From positions 1 through 64,000 of the forward strand of contig JAQTYU010000002.1 of NCBI GenBank assembly GCA_028688145.1: a stretch of 64,000 bases of DNA. Reading direction: 5' to 3'. Shown piece after piece: positions 35,336-45,724 of the stretch (position 1 is the stretch's first letter; each line of letters starts with the position of its first letter). The notes beneath the pieces are model-generated. The model worked only from the letters and a program-made list of their open reading frames with translations. It was not told where the DNA came from and did no database searches. The position numbers were made by a program, and so were the translations under genes. Source of the DNA: Thiotrichaceae bacterium (GTDB lineage Bacteria > Pseudomonadota > Gammaproteobacteria > Beggiatoales > Beggiatoaceae).

Positions 35336-36397
35336 TTAAAATTTAAGCGCATTCTGAAATATATCCGTATCCCATAATGTTTCATGCAGGCTATTTGCCC
35401 GTGTATACTTGTCCGCCTTATTTTCTAACTGAGCCTTAATTGCATTGGCTAAATGATAGGCAAAACGCACAGGAACAGCATTACCAATCATTTTGTAACC
35501 ATCAGCAACCATCTGATAATGAAAAATAAAACTATCTGGGAACGTTTGAATACGTGCACATTCCCGCACGCTTAAGCGACGATATTGATTTTCGCTTTCT
35601 ACTGCAAAGGCAAATTTATCTTTAGCTACATACTGCATTTTTGGAGCTTGAGGGTGAAGCGGTGCATGTCTGCCACCCGCTTGAATGGTAAAAGAAGGCT
35701 CATTCCACATACGTACACGGTTACGTGACATGAATATACTGGAAAATCCACCAATCATATATTCATGATTAGCAATGCTCATCGCAGGATTGGTTCTATT
35801 TTTTTCCAGGGCAGCAACTTCTTTGGTATGTAAATCAAAAATAGCGTCTTTCAAACATAATTTTTTTGGTATTGAAGAGGGAAAAATAAATTTTTTTCCT
35901 AAATCCTTGCGAAATCCAACAAAAATAAGCCGTTTTCTATCTTGTGGCACTTCATAATCATAAGCATTTAATAAGCGGTACTCGACGTAGTAATTCGCTT
36001 GGTCAAAAGCCTGCAAAATATTTTCTAAGGCTTGTTTATGCTTATGATGTAGCATACCTGAGACATTTTCAGCCAAAAAGAATAAAGGCTGTTTTTCAGA
36101 GAGTAAACGCACATAGTCTAAAAATAATTGTCCACGCGCATCTTTAATACCACGTTGTGTACCAGCCTCACTCCAGCTTTGACAAGGAGGTCCGCCAATC
36201 ATTCCGATAACATCAGGAATCTCATTGGGTTCAATTTGTACAATACTGCGGGTGTCTAAATGGGTTTCAGGAAAATTAGCGCGATGAGTTTCCCAAATAC
36301 TGGAATCGTATTCATTAGCCCAAACAATATTAAAACCCGCTTGTGTAAAACCTAAATCCAAACCACCTGCACCTGAGAAGAAAGAAGCGATTTTCAT
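35336..36397 (-). CDS. C5-cytosine DNA methyltransferase, M.HaeIII-like
   Basis: This S-adenosylmethionine-dependent enzyme methylates cytosine in DNA. Motif I is FFSGAGGLDLGF, the catalytic Cys72 lies in GGPPCQSW, motif VI is ENVSGM, motif VIII is DRKRLIFVGFR, and motifs IX/X are RRLSVRECARIQTFP and GYKMIGNAVPVRFA. The variable region (FMSRNRVRMWNEPSFTIQA, LHPQAPKM) strongly resembles that of M.HaeIII, so GGCC is the predicted site (inference from remembered sequence). It has the full length of 353 residues. No restriction endonuclease gene is adjacent. Flanking repeats and neighbouring IS debris indicate an acquired gene. Confidence 0.92.
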   Translation of the reverse strand: MKIASFFSGAGGLDLGFTQAGFNIVWANEYDSSIWETHRANFPETHLDTRSIVQIEPNEIPDVIGMIGGPPCQSWSEAGTQRGIKDARGQLFLDYVRLLSEKQPLFFLAENVSGMLHHKHKQALENILQAFDQANYYVEYRLLNAYDYEVPQDRKRLIFVGFRKDLGKKFIFPSSIPKKLCLKDAIFDLHTKEVAALEKNRTNPAMSIANHEYMIGGFSSIFMSRNRVRMWNEPSFTIQAGGRHAPLHPQAPKMQYVAKDKFAFAVESENQYRRLSVRECARIQTFPDSFIFHYQMVADGYKMIGNAVPVRFAYHLANAIKAQLENKADKYTRANSLHETLWDTDIFQNALKF

Positions 36398-36506: not shown

Positions 36507-36624
36507 GTAGGGTGTATAAGCATCGCGTCATACACCTCACAATTTAAGAGTTGTACAGTCACAAAGAATGGGATGCGTGGTTTTTTAATTAAGGTGTATG
36601 GCGGCTGCGCCTTATACACCCTAC
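36507..36624. repeat. Inverted-repeat element overlapping the XRE gene stop
   Basis: The ends GTAGGGTGTATAAG (36507-36520) and CTTATACACCCTAC (36611-36624) are perfect inverted copies bounding 118 bases without a gene. The right end supplies the TAG stop of the leftward XRE gene (36621-36623). Confidence 0.75.
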
Positions 36625-37010
36625 GCTTGTTGTTTATTCAATAAACCCAGCATCATTCTTAAATCTTCAATTTGTTGTGTCAATAAAGCTATTTCGCTAT
36701 CTTTCTTTTCAACTAATAAGTGCATTTTTTCTAGCTCTTGAGTCAATTCTATTGCCGAATTTATATGACTTTGATAATACTGAATACTCCGATCATGAAA
36801 TGAGAAGTTATTTTTCTCATCCTCAAATAAATCTTTCAATTCAATACCAAGCACGTCAGCGATTTTTTCTAATCGAGGAATATGTAATTTAGTTTCTCCC
36901 CTTTCAATTTTTGCATAGCCTGTTACCGACATGTTTAGTTTTTCTGCCATCTCTTCTTGACTCCAGCCTCTTAATGTCCGAACTAAATTCATTTTTTTCC
37001 CAATATCCAT
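36621..37010 (-). CDS. XRE-family transcriptional regulator with C-terminal coiled coil
   Basis: The N-terminal helix-turn-helix (about residues 7-62: MNLVRTLRGWSQEEMAEKLN, then GYAKIERGE, IPRLEKIADVLGIELKDLF) is a Cro/CI type. Residues about 80-125 form a Glu/Leu-rich coiled coil, a likely dimerisation region. At 129 residues it is longer than typical restriction-modification controller proteins. It is divergent from a 61-residue ORF and lies upstream of the methyltransferase gene on the same strand. It may control either of them, but the target is unknown. Confidence 0.85.
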   Translation of the reverse strand: MDIGKKMNLVRTLRGWSQEEMAEKLNMSVTGYAKIERGETKLHIPRLEKIADVLGIELKDLFEDEKNNFSFHDRSIQYYQSHINSAIELTQELEKMHLLVEKKDSEIALLTQQIEDLRMMLGLLNKQQA

Positions 37011-42263: not shown

Positions 42264-42761
42264 ATGTCTTCAGTAAATAAAGTAATTTTGGTGGGGCGTT
42301 TGGGCAATGATCCCGAAGTGCGTTATACCGCCACGGGTTCTGCGGTGGCAAATATCAGTCTTGCGACCTCTGAAAACTGGAAAGATAAGCAAACCGGTGA
42401 AAAACAAGAACGTACCGAATGGCATCGTATCGTTTTTTTTAATAAGTTGGCGGAAATCGTTGCCCAATATTTGCGCAAAGGTTCGCTGATTTATGTGGAA
42501 GGGGCGTTGCAAACCCGTAAATGGCAAGATAAAAATGGTGAAGATCGTTACACCACCGAAATCGTTGCCAATGAAATGCGAATGTTGGGTAGCAAATCTG
42601 AAAATTCGGGTACGGCAAGTTATTCTGCCCCTGCTGCGCCTAGCAGTTACGCGCCCGCCGCCTCTAGCAATATGGGTTCACAACAACAAAGTGCGCCGCG
42701 TCAATCAGCACCACCGCCCAGCAGCTCGCCTGATAATTTTGATGATGATGTGCCGTTTTAA
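42264..42761 (+). CDS. ssb: Single-stranded DNA-binding protein
   Basis: SSB coats single-stranded DNA in replication, recombination and repair. The N-terminal OB fold (about 1-110) starts [21 protein letters not shown] and contains [21 protein letters not shown] Pro/Ser/Ala/Gln-rich linker follows, and the acidic partner-binding tip is DDDVPF. The length of 165 residues is usual. AAAGG precedes the ATG. Confidence 0.97.
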
Positions 42762-43288
42762 GGCTTAAGGACTGGCAGTCTTTTGAGGACTGCCAGTCCT
42801 TAAACTCGATCTCACTCAAGACCTGCTAGGTTTCTAAAACCTAGCAGGTCTAATCGTTTCTCTCGTTCCCAAACTCCGTTTGGGAATGCCTGTCGGTCAA
42901 GCTCTGCTTGACGATTCGGAAAACCTGAAGCATCGTTCAATAAATGACGAGTGAATAGGATGTGCCGACAACAGGAGGCTCATCAATCGAGATTCATTGA
43001 GTTCTCTCACGAATGATGCGCTTCGTTCCTCAGCACATCCTATTAGCACTATTAGAATTCGTAGGTTGGGTTGGCGATTAGTCAACCCAACAAAAATAGA
43101 GCACGGAAATTAGGATTGTAGATAATTTGGAATTAATGTTGGGTTGCAGAGAGCAACCCAACCTACGTGGCTCAAACCCATAAAATAATTTCAGGAATTA
43201 ATGCGATTTTGATATGATGAAAACGACACCAAATAATAAACTAAAAATTAAAACTAGCATCAAGTAAAACTTACTTCTGGATATTTTT
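42762..43288. repeat. Repeat-dense intergenic region upstream of the GHKL/nuclease gene
   Basis: It has no gene but at least four palindromic blocks: AAGGACTGGCAGTC and its mirror (42767-42801, possibly the ssb terminator); GACCTGCTAGGTTT and its mirror (42820-42850); ATAGGATGTGC and GCACATCCTAT (42956-43043); and GTAGGTTGGGTTG with CAACCCAACCTAC (43061-43166). The first two form a composite unit repeated at 45610-45681. Confidence 0.75.
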
Positions 43289-45286
43289 ATGGCTAAGGTT
43301 AGCGTTTCCGTAAAAGCTGATTTTCTCAAATCCCTCGCATCCGCAAAACCACTACCTGCATTGGCTGAGCTGATCTGGAATGGTTTTGACGCAGGCTCAA
43401 AACATGTTGATGTTTTTATTAATAAAAATGAGCTGGGTGGAGTTCACTCTATTACTGTCAGAGATGATGGGAATGGGATTGATCATGCCAAAATTAACGA
43501 ACTATTTGGAAGCTTGGGAGAGTCTTGGAAAAAAGAGCATCCCAAACTACATGGCAGAGCTCTTCATGGTAAAAAAGGACGAGGACGGCTTCAAGCATTT
43601 GCTTTAGGGTCTTATGTTGAGTGGAAAACCACTTATGAAGAATCAGGAAAGAGTTATTCCTATCGGATTACAGGCAAAGCTGAAGAACTAGAAGATTTCG
43701 ACGTTACTGAACCGAAGGAAGTTAATACGTCCGTAGGAACAACTGTCACTATCAGTAATATCGAGAAAAATTTTATTTCTTTGAAAGCTGAAGATCGTCC
43801 TCAGCAAAAATTAGCCGAGATGTTTTCGGTATACCTGACGGAATATCCAGAGTTACATCTCCAATATGACGGTAAAACCATCGATCCAAAATCGGTTCAA
43901 AATGATCGCAAAGATTATATTTTAGATGAGATAACATTAACGGATGGTAAAAAGCTTACACCAGCACCTGTTGTATCCATTATTGAGTGGAAAAGTCGCA
44001 CCGAACGTAGGATTCATTTCTGTGATGCCAAAGGAATTTCACTACATGAGATACCCGTTGAGCACAAGATTCCAGCACCTGGTTTTAACTTTACTGTTTA
44101 TATCAAGACGGATCACTTTAAAGAGTTAGACAAAAATAATTGTCTTTCTGAATTAAATAATGACGTTAAACGCATTTTAGATGTCGCTGTCAGTACGGTT
44201 AAAACCCACTTTAAAGAACGTAAAGAGGCAGCAGCAAGTGAGATAGTCGCCAGTTGGAAAAAGGATAATATTTATCCATATCCTGACAAACCCAATATTG
44301 ATCCCATTGAATTAGCCGAAAGACAATTTTTTGACATTTTTGCGGTTAATGTTCAAGAGTATTTACCTAATTTTGAAAAATCAGACTTCAAATCAAAGAA
44401 GTTTACATTTTCTCTTCTTGCTCAAGCTCTTAAACAGAACACTGACTCTGTCCAAACCATTATCAGTGAAGTGCTGGGATTAACTAAAGACAAACAAGAT
44501 GACCTTGCTGAGTTGCTCAAGAACACTAAACTTTCAGCAATAATCAGTGCATCTAAAGTAGTGGCTAACCGTCTTGATTTTCTCAAAGCGCTTGAGATAC
44601 TTGTATTTGATCCTGAAAGTAAGCGTAACTGTTTAGAGCGCGATCAACTACATAAAATCTTAGAAAAAGAAGCATGGATATTTCACGAAGAATTTAGTTT
44701 AGCAGGAAGCGAACAACGGCTTGATGAGGTACTTAAGAAACACCTTGATAAGTTGGGAAACAGATCAGACGATGATGTACATATCGGTAATGCAGGGGAC
44801 AAACGTGTCGATTTAATGCTCCACAAGACTATTCAGCCTAGGTCTGGGGAATTTGATTATCTGATTGTTGAGCTAAAAAGACCCTCGAAAAAGATTAATG
44901 CTCAGGTTTTGATGCAGATCGAAGAGTATGCGATGGCAGTTGCAGAAGATGAAAGGTTTCAAGCGGGAAAGACTCGTTGGACATTCATGGCAATTTCCAA
45001 TGAAATTGATACGTATGCAAGGAATAAATCTCGACAACGTGATAAACCTCAGGGGCAGATCTATGATGATGGGGAGAGAAATATCACAGTTTGGGTTAAA
45101 ACTTGGTCTGAGATTATAGGTGATGCCCGAGCCAAACTTCAATTTATCAACAAGCAGCTTGAATATCAGGCTGATGATGATTCTGCAAAGGATTATCTTC
45201 GGGAAAAACACGAAAAGTTCATTCCTAACGCCCCTGTTTTTCAAACTGCAAATGACACAAACTCGTCTTCAGCAGTAACCGTTTAG
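43289..45286 (+). CDS. GHKL ATPase fused to a Shedu-like PD-(D/E)xK nuclease domain; candidate defence protein
   Basis: The 665-residue protein joins two recognisable parts. Residues about 1-190 are a GHKL/HATPase domain of the MutL/Hsp90 type: N-box ELIWNGFDAGS (Glu27, Asn31), G1 box DDGNGI (59-64), and G2-like loop HGKKGRGRLQAFALG (93-107). Residues about 450-640 resemble the DUF4263 (Shedu SduA-type) nuclease: EKEAWIFHEEF, Asp508 in KRVDLML, then Glu528-x-Lys530 in LIVELKRP, followed by QIEEYAMAV. The middle is helical and not recognised. GGAT precedes the ATG. Its codon use looks more AT-rich than its neighbours, and repeats and a broken 5S gene flank it, so transfer is likely. Function is inferred: an ATP-gated nuclease, perhaps anti-phage. 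Confidence 0.8.
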   Translation: MAKVSVSVKADFLKSLASAKPLPALAELIWNGFDAGSKHVDVFINKNELGGVHSITVRDDGNGIDHAKINELFGSLGESWKKEHPKLHGRALHGKKGRGRLQAFALGSYVEWKTTYEESGKSYSYRITGKAEELEDFDVTEPKEVNTSVGTTVTISNIEKNFISLKAEDRPQQKLAEMFSVYLTEYPELHLQYDGKTIDPKSVQNDRKDYILDEITLTDGKKLTPAPVVSIIEWKSRTERRIHFCDAKGISLHEIPVEHKIPAPGFNFTVYIKTDHFKELDKNNCLSELNNDVKRILDVAVSTVKTHFKERKEAAASEIVASWKKDNIYPYPDKPNIDPIELAERQFFDIFAVNVQEYLPNFEKSDFKSKKFTFSLLAQALKQNTDSVQTIISEVLGLTKDKQDDLAELLKNTKLSAIISASKVVANRLDFLKALEILVFDPESKRNCLERDQLHKILEKEAWIFHEEFSLAGSEQRLDEVLKKHLDKLGNRSDDDVHIGNAGDKRVDLMLHKTIQPRSGEFDYLIVELKRPSKKINAQVLMQIEEYAMAVAEDERFQAGKTRWTFMAISNEIDTYARNKSRQRDKPQGQIYDDGERNITVWVKTWSEIIGDARAKLQFINKQLEYQADDDSAKDYLREKHEKFIPNAPVFQTANDTNSSSAVTV

Positions 45287-45303: not shown

Positions 45304-45336
45304 AAAAAAGCGGCTGAGAGATCAAGCCGCTTTTTT
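45304..45336. terminator. Bidirectional terminator
   Basis: AAAAAAGCGGCT and AGCCGCTTTTTT form a stem with A and T runs on both sides, 17 bases after the stop of the GHKL/nuclease gene. Confidence 0.85.
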
Positions 45337-45494: not shown

Positions 45495-45592
45495 AGCCCT
45501 GGCAGTGACCTACTTTCACATGGGGAGAGCCCACACTATCATCGGCGCTAAGTGGTTTCACTACCGAGTTCGAAATGGTATCGGGTGGTACC
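45495..45592 (-). rRNA. rrf: 5S ribosomal RNA gene, 5'-truncated
   Basis: Read on the minus strand, the sequence shows the 5S core ACCATTTCGAACTCGGTAGT, then GTGAAACC, AGCGCCGATGATAGTGTGGG, CTCCCCATGTGAAAGTAGGT and the 3' end CACTGCCAGGGC. The expected 5' strand of helix I (complement of the 3' end) and the first 20 or so bases are not found upstream of 45592. The text there becomes CCTTCTTG and then the composite repeat at 45610. No 23S gene lies upstream. This looks like a relic of an rrn operon end rather than a working gene. Confidence 0.8.
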
Positions 45593-45609
45593 CAAGAAGG
45601 CTAAGTCTC

Positions 45610-45681
45610 AAGGACTGGCAGTCCTGAATCTCGATCCCACTAAAAAGAAAGACCTGCTAGGTTTTAAAAAGCTAGCAGGTC
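45610..45681. repeat. Composite palindromic repeat, second copy
   Basis: AGGACTGGCAGTCCT, then a spacer with CTCGATCCCACT, then GACCTGCTAG...CTAGCAGGTC. The same order and spacer (CTCGATCTCACT) occur at 42767-42850. A third, partial relative is at 48547-48579. Confidence 0.75.
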
Positions 45682-45724
45682 TGATTCAAGATTTACATTC
45701 AAAAAAAGTGATAATCAGAAACGC

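What the first reader, a model, noticed from the sequence alone, without database searches (positions are those of the whole stretch)
43289..45286. Single-gene GHKL-ATPase fused to a Shedu-like PD-(D/E)xK nuclease: candidate defence system
Seen: an N-terminal GHKL ATPase (ELIWNGFDAGS, DDGNGI, HGKKGRGRLQAFALG) and a C-terminal nuclease-like core (Asp508, Glu528-x-Lys530) in one chain. The gene stands alone, its codon use looks more AT-rich than the flanking core genes, and it sits between a repeat-dense tract and a broken 5S gene. Known: GHKL ATPases act as ATP-driven clamps (MutL, MORC, Hsp90), and DUF4263 nucleases (Shedu) act against phage. Inferred: ATP-gated dimerisation controls DNA cleavage in an immune or plasmid-exclusion role.
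Basis: partly seen in the sequence, partly recalled or inferred. Interest (0 to 1): 0.82.

Follow-up and report, generated by a model that had tools for sequence, protein, structure and literature searches.

The report
ATP-gated nuclease, likely anti-phage defence
A single foreign-looking gene encodes a MutL/MORC-type ATPase joined to a DNA-cutting domain; this build is already known (paraMORC3, of which the proven cholera phage-defence protein VcSduA is described as an example), so it is probably a one-gene defence against phages or plasmids rather than something new.

Summary
Window 43289-45286 (+) encodes one intact 665-residue protein: an N-terminal GHKL+S5 ATPase (predicted fold closest to MORC3, TRAP1/Hsp90 and MutL) and a C-terminal PD-(D/E)xK nuclease fold. 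In 67 aligned sequences the ATP-site residues (E27, N31, D59, G61, G63, HGxxGxGR 93-100) and D508, E528, K530, Y547 are invariant. The gene has low GC3 (32% against 41-49% in most neighbours) and is single-copy; 36 family relatives hold no close copy.

The build was described in 2008 as paraMORC3, and VcSduA of Vibrio cholerae, a "Shedu with a GHKL ATPase", was shown in 2025 to block phages. "Shedu-like" is fair but not exclusive: the nuclease fold matches Shedu, EndoMS/NucS and FokI-type domains about equally.

Added here: relatives sit in type I restriction operons (hsdS within 6 kb in 9 of 67 loci), in prophages, on plasmids, in the psu-int defence hotspot of an E. coli P4 satellite, and once beside a genuine Shedu gene. 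Best explanation: an ATP-gated clamp that licenses cleavage of invading DNA. Its trigger and biochemistry are untested, and the VcSduA sequence could not be fetched for direct comparison.

The parts
43289..45286 (+). Whole gene: GHKL ATPase-PD-(D/E)xK nuclease (paraMORC3-type), 665 aa
43289..44254 (+). Residues 1-322: GHKL ATPase plus S5-type transducer; ATP site E27, N31, D59-x-G61-x-G63, HGxxGxGR 93-100
   Evidence: Pfam HATPase_c_3; AF2 pLDDT 88.9; MORC3 5ix2 Z 19.3, MORC2 9cdj Z 18.4, TRAP1 7exp Z 18.3, MutL 1nhh Z 15.9; invariant residues
44255..44569 (+). Residues 323-427: helical linker/middle segment
   Evidence: helices in the AF2 model, some of lower confidence (pLDDT 64-95)
44570..45226 (+). 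Residues 428-646: PD-(D/E)xK nuclease domain; E450, D508, E528-x-K530, Q543-x3-Y547
   Evidence: AF2 of domain alone pLDDT 84.2; EndoMS 5gke Z 9.7, nickase BspD6I 9.6, E. coli SduA 8ps4 9.4, B. cereus Shedu 8ti9 9.4, FokI 9.1; hhalign to Shedu
45304..45336 (.). Terminator-like hairpin with A and T runs on both sides, ends the transcription unit (inferred)
   Evidence: sequence read directly, coordinates
42759..42854 (.). Left copy of the dispersed paired palindrome
45602..45685 (.). Right copy of the same paired palindrome, direct orientation (22 nt at 91%, 37 nt at 89%)

Best explanation
It is a horizontally acquired, single-gene defence protein of the paraMORC3 build. Shown here: an intact GHKL+S5 ATPase fused to an intact PD-(D/E)xK nuclease domain, all active-site residues invariant in relatives, and relatives enriched next to restriction genes and on mobile elements. 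Inferred: the protein works as a dimer; ATP binding closes the two N-terminal GHKL domains into a clamp around DNA, as in MutL, MORC and Hsp90; a feature of invading DNA is sensed through the S5/middle clamp; the closed state brings the two C-terminal nuclease domains onto the DNA, which is cut; ATP hydrolysis resets the clamp. The expected outcome is direct restriction of phage or plasmid DNA without killing the cell, as reported for VcSduA.
For: Domain and residue evidence. Context of relatives: Psychrobacter plasmid beside dcm + LlaMI + Drt2; Phaeobacter plasmid beside a type ISP enzyme and TA genes; Bradyrhizobium plasmid beside a helicase and an Abi gene; two Pasteurella prophages as cargo among tail genes; 61 loci on viral contigs; E. 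coli: 11 of 5426 genomes, the two inspected being in a P4-like satellite between psu and the integrase at ssrA (with 38% identity to the window protein), a locus published as an anti-phage hotspot (PMC9122126); type I R-M operons, hsdS within 6 kb in 9 of 67 loci, Poisson P at most 8e-8 even at 4 hsdS per 3.6 Mb, none seen among distant controls; canonical SduA next to the copy in Pseudoxanthomonas daejeonensis. Acquired: GC3; sporadic, 7 of 368 other Gammaproteobacteria at E <= 1e-10. Published: VcSduA E27A and K557A both abolish phage protection (PMC12137116).
Against: In the window itself no defence gene is adjacent; the nearest, a C5 methylase, is 7 kb away. Most relatives also stand alone. 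No activity, dimerisation or trigger was tested.
Confidence: 0.72

Rival explanations
1. It is an accessory subunit of type I restriction systems: it acts in trans with one of the host's own hsdMSR loci, as an ATP-driven clamp nuclease on DNA that the translocating HsdR has stalled on or looped.
For: hsdS-[gene]-hsdR operons with gaps of -13 to 59 bp, same strand, in Gammaproteobacteria, Lentisphaerae, Verrucomicrobia and Myxococcota relatives; four hsdS genes in the window's own genome.
Against: Most relatives lack linked R-M genes; in the window genome all four hsdS are far away; VcSduA works alone in E. coli (PMC12137116).
Confidence: 0.12
2. It is a DNA-repair protein: a MutL-like ATPase fused to an EndoMS/NucS-like nuclease that cuts mismatched or branched DNA.
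For: EndoMS is among the top fold matches of the C-terminal domain (Z 9.7) and NucS_C in profile comparison; the N-terminal half matches MutL (Z 15.9). Iyer et al. speculated on mismatch repair for standalone paraMORC3.
Against: Sporadic distribution, plasmid/prophage/satellite location and restriction-gene neighbours; no recurrent repair-gene neighbour; two other strong HATPase_c_3 proteins of MutL/HtpG size exist in the genome, though they were not identified one by one.
Confidence: 0.08
3. It is cargo of a mobile element that protects or stabilises that element (plasmid exclusion or superinfection exclusion) rather than the cell.
For: 47 plasmid records and many viral contigs carry relatives; two prophage copies; psu-int cargo in satellites.
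Against: In the window it sits on a 562-kb contig between ssb and sox genes with no integrase, transposase or phage gene within several kb.
Confidence: 0.06

Closest known systems
paraMORC3 family (Iyer, Abhiman and Aravind 2008, PMC2292703)
   Same: N-terminal GHKL, S5 domain and C-terminal RE-fold domain with E-D-ExK; mostly standalone, sporadic, mobile.
   Different: No defining feature differs. The 2008 paper reports no conserved neighbourhood for the nuclease-bearing standalone members; here a subset sits in type I R-M operons.
VcSduA, GHKL-ATPase Shedu (type I-D) of V. cholerae VSP-II WASA (Adams et al. 2025, PMC12137116)
   Same: Same architecture; catalytic Glu at residue 27 in both; a nuclease lysine essential there (K557) corresponds by motif to K530 here; single gene.
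   Different: E27-K557 spacing of 530 against 503 here (498-518 in the family); the Pfam Shedu domain is not detected in the window protein; no direct sequence comparison was possible.
Canonical Shedu SduA (E. coli 8ps4, B. cereus 8ti9)
   Same: Nuclease domain fold (Z 9.4 over 154 and 145 residues) and D/ExK/Q arrangement; hhalign probability 85-88%.
   Different: N-terminal region unrelated; about 10-14% identity; fold match tied with EndoMS, BspD6I and FokI.
MutL / MORC ATPases
   Same: GHKL+S5 module, ATP motifs, probably dimeric clamp.
   Different: The MORC-specific GhxhhpxxRhl motif is absent in all 67 sequences; MutL model scores 31 against a cut-off of 180.
BbrUII/HgiDII type II restriction enzymes (NF050001)
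   Same: GHKL N-terminal half recognised (E 3e-20).
   Different: 72 bits against a cut-off of 550; match confined mainly to the GHKL part; no adjacent cognate methylase.

Membership tests
paraMORC3 | N-terminal GHKL with motifs for ATP binding | tested here: met
   (67/67 HATPase_c_3)
paraMORC3 | S5-type domain after the GHKL domain | tested here: met
   Fold alignment spans residues 7-322 with MORC, MutL and Hsp90 N+middle domains
paraMORC3 | C-terminal RE-fold domain with E-D-ExK | tested here: met
   E450 66/67, D508 and E528-x-K530 67/67; PD-(D/E)xK fold
paraMORC3 | Lacks the MORC-specific S5 motif | tested here: met
   0 of 67
Shedu (signature DUF4263 / SduA_C) | Pfam SduA_C or PADLOC SduA match | tested here: not met
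   Window protein: no match at E <= 1. Relatives: SduA_C 2/67 at best E 0.022, PADLOC SduA 9/67 at best 9e-7
Shedu (signature DUF4263 / SduA_C) | Shared nuclease fold and active-site layout | tested here: inconclusive
   hhalign prob 85-88% with D, ExK and Q aligned, but NucS_C 83% and HSDR_N_2 69%; fold Z 9.4 tied with EndoMS 9.7 and FokI 9.1
GHKL-Shedu type I-D (VcSduA) | GHKL N-terminus, nuclease C-terminus, one gene | tested here: met
GHKL-Shedu type I-D (VcSduA) | Sequence homology to VcSduA itself | not tested
   V. cholerae A1552 sequence not in the collections used; only E27/K557 positions compared
GHKL-Shedu type I-D (VcSduA) | ATP- and nuclease-dependent phage protection | not testable with these tools
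   needs plaque assays
MutL | TIGR00585 above cut-off | tested here: not met
   30.8 bits against 180
BbrUII/HgiDII type II restriction enzyme | NF050001 above cut-off | tested here: not met
   72.4 bits against 550

The most novel reading that the evidence does not exclude
paraMORC3 nucleases are a recurrent add-on module of type I restriction systems: an ATP-clamp nuclease that works with HsdMSR, in cis where it sits between hsdS and hsdR and in trans elsewhere, for example against DNA that escapes or blocks the type I enzyme.
Probability: 0.12. Interest if true: 0.62.

Novelty: new member of a known kind. Interest (0 to 1): 0.36.

Why it matters
It gives one more, distantly placed case of GHKL ATPases as gates for nuclease immunity, the bacterial counterpart of MORC proteins that silence transposons in eukaryotes. 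The type I R-M linkage and the P4-satellite copy in E. coli, carried by otherwise ordinary strains, make the mechanism testable with laboratory E. coli tools.

Tried and rejected
Single-sequence scan of genome contigs found nothing; an alignment query was needed. The VcSduA sequence could not be reached: not in plasmids or phages by tblastn with the window protein, no Vibrio genome handle to centre on, supplementary files not available. Considered and dropped: MutL proper, MORC proper, BbrUII-type restriction enzyme. Considered and dropped: the C5 methylase at 35336-36397 as cognate methylase; it is 7 kb away with core genes between. The repeat copies on both sides were considered as element ends but the repeat is dispersed genome-wide (57 exact half-sites), so they are weak evidence for a mobile unit. 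Sequence search of the PDB with the nuclease profile gave nothing; only fold comparison did. Proteus copy found no E. coli relative. An empty site in relatives was not sought: no genome of the same genus is held.

Full report
Observation. The ORF at 43289-45286 (+) is intact and encodes 665 residues. The N-terminus matches HATPase_c_3 (E 2e-17) and the whole chain matches the phage protein family phrog_6203, function unknown, over residues 10-634. The gene is the only copy in its 3.63-Mb genome. Codon position 3 is 31.7% GC against 41-49% in most neighbours. None of 36 other genomes of the same family holds a close copy; the best is a distant relative in two weak segments (G020, E 4e-13). Among Gammaproteobacteria 7 of 368 others have a match at E <= 1e-10. 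This pattern fits horizontal acquisition.

Anatomy. An alignment of 67 sequences, 23-62% identical to the window protein, keeps without exception E27, N31, D34, D59, G61, G63, H93, G94, G97, G99 and R100, and in the C-terminal half D508, E528, K530 and Y547; E450 and Q543 are kept in 66 of 67. A model built from this alignment has mean pLDDT 88.9. Residues 7-322 match MORC3 (5ix2, Z 19.3, rmsd 4.1, 282 aligned), MORC2 (9cdj, Z 18.4), TRAP1 (7exp, Z 18.3) and MutL (1nhh, Z 15.9, rmsd 3.9, 263 aligned). The C-terminal domain modelled alone (residues 428-646, pLDDT 84.2) matches EndoMS (5gke, Z 9.7, rmsd 3.4, 112 aligned), nickase BspD6I (9.6), E. coli SduA (8ps4, Z 9.4, rmsd 3.7, 154 aligned), B. 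cereus Shedu (8ti9, Z 9.4, 145 aligned) and FokI (9.1); these are ties. Foldseek ranks EndoMS first (E 2e-4) and SduA fourth (E 3e-3).

Shedu or not. Profile comparison with 12 Shedu sequences gives probability 85-88% and aligns the catalytic Asp, Glu-x-Lys and Gln over 147 or more columns. Controls built here give NucS_C 83% over 43 columns and HSDR_N_2 69% over 70 columns, so Shedu is the longest and best-scoring match but not by a clear margin. The Pfam SduA_C model does not hit the window protein; PADLOC SduA hits 9 of 67 sequences. 'PD-(D/E)xK nuclease, Shedu-related' is the safe wording.

Context of relatives. I clustered 642 mechanically called ORFs within 6 kb of 67 copies from separate genomes. 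Only four families recur in more than two loci: an SF2 helicase cluster of 13 loci that includes HsdR, HsdM (9), HsdS (7 in the cluster, 9 counting two more found by Pfam) and a YgjP-like metallopeptidase (6). Pfam confirms these roles for the proteins scanned; some members of the helicase cluster (L050, L059) are other SF2 helicases. In several loci the gene is in one operon with them, for example hsdS, gene, hsdR with gaps of 7 and 17 bp (L046), or a SIR2-domain gene, gene, hsdR, overlapping (L056). Nine hsdS loci in 654 kb of flank are far above expectation at any plausible density (P at most 8e-8); ORFs more than 6.5 kb away show no Methylase_S among the families listed. The loci are the 80 best hits of one search with near-duplicates removed, so the fraction is not a population estimate, and defence genes cluster in general. 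Other contexts: plasmids beside R-M, Drt2, Abi and TA genes, two Pasteurella prophages, 61 viral contig loci, and in E. coli a P4-like satellite between psu and int at ssrA, the locus described as an anti-phage hotspot in PMC9122126. In Pseudoxanthomonas daejeonensis a canonical Shedu gene lies within 1 kb, on the opposite strand.

Mechanism. Inferred from the fold and from published relatives: ATP-dependent closure of a GHKL dimer gates a PD-(D/E)xK nuclease on invading DNA. For VcSduA, E27A and K557A abolish phage protection and cells survive at all tested multiplicities (PMC12137116); authors there propose the same gating. Nothing here shows the trigger, the dimer or cleavage. The rivals (type I R-M accessory, repair, element-centred exclusion) are weighed in their own sections.

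Novelty. The architecture is paraMORC3 (PMC2292703), which lists standalone nuclease-bearing members without conserved neighbours, and VcSduA is its tested example. The window gene is therefore a new member of a known kind. What may be new is the type I R-M operon linkage of a subset. Direct sequence comparison with VcSduA could not be made; its E-to-K spacing (530 residues) lies outside the range found here (498-518), so it may belong to a neighbouring subfamily.

Noticed in passing
window 42759-42854 and 45602-45685: A paired palindrome (AGGACTGGCAGTCCTT-type and AGACCTGCTAGGTTT/AAACCTAGCAGGTCT) flanks the gene in direct orientation; 57 exact half-sites of the second palindrome exist in the genome, so it is a REP-like dispersed repeat.
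   Followed up: partly
window 45497-45613 (-): A lone 5S rRNA match covering the full Rfam model but with mispairs in the outer helix, abutting the right repeat, without 16S or 23S; the only 5S found in the draft genome.
   Followed up: partly
window 35336-36397 (-) and 36621-37010 (-): C5 cytosine methylase and an RstR-like HTH regulator, both with GC3 of 28.5%, look acquired; no restriction enzyme seen beside the methylase.
   Followed up: partly
L043:12682-13932 (Pseudoxanthomonas daejeonensis): A canonical Shedu (SduA_C E 1e-27) gene within 1 kb of the paraMORC3 copy, opposite strand.
   Followed up: yes
L028, L032, L035, L046, L056, L058, L067, L068, L077, L100: Type I restriction genes beside the paraMORC3 copy in several phyla, some in one operon; other defence-type neighbours include SIR2_2 (L056), GmrSD_N (L068) and Schlafen AlbA_2 (L028).
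   Followed up: yes
L238 and L239 (E. coli): A 38%-identical relative (WP_021536577) sits at the psu-int hotspot of a P4-like satellite at ssrA; 11 of 5426 complete E. coli genomes carry it.
   Followed up: yes
L183 (genome G176): A 659-aa ORF with a GHKL-like N-terminus and a match to Pfam SduA_C, apparently a second GHKL-Shedu lineage closer to canonical Shedu.
   Followed up: no
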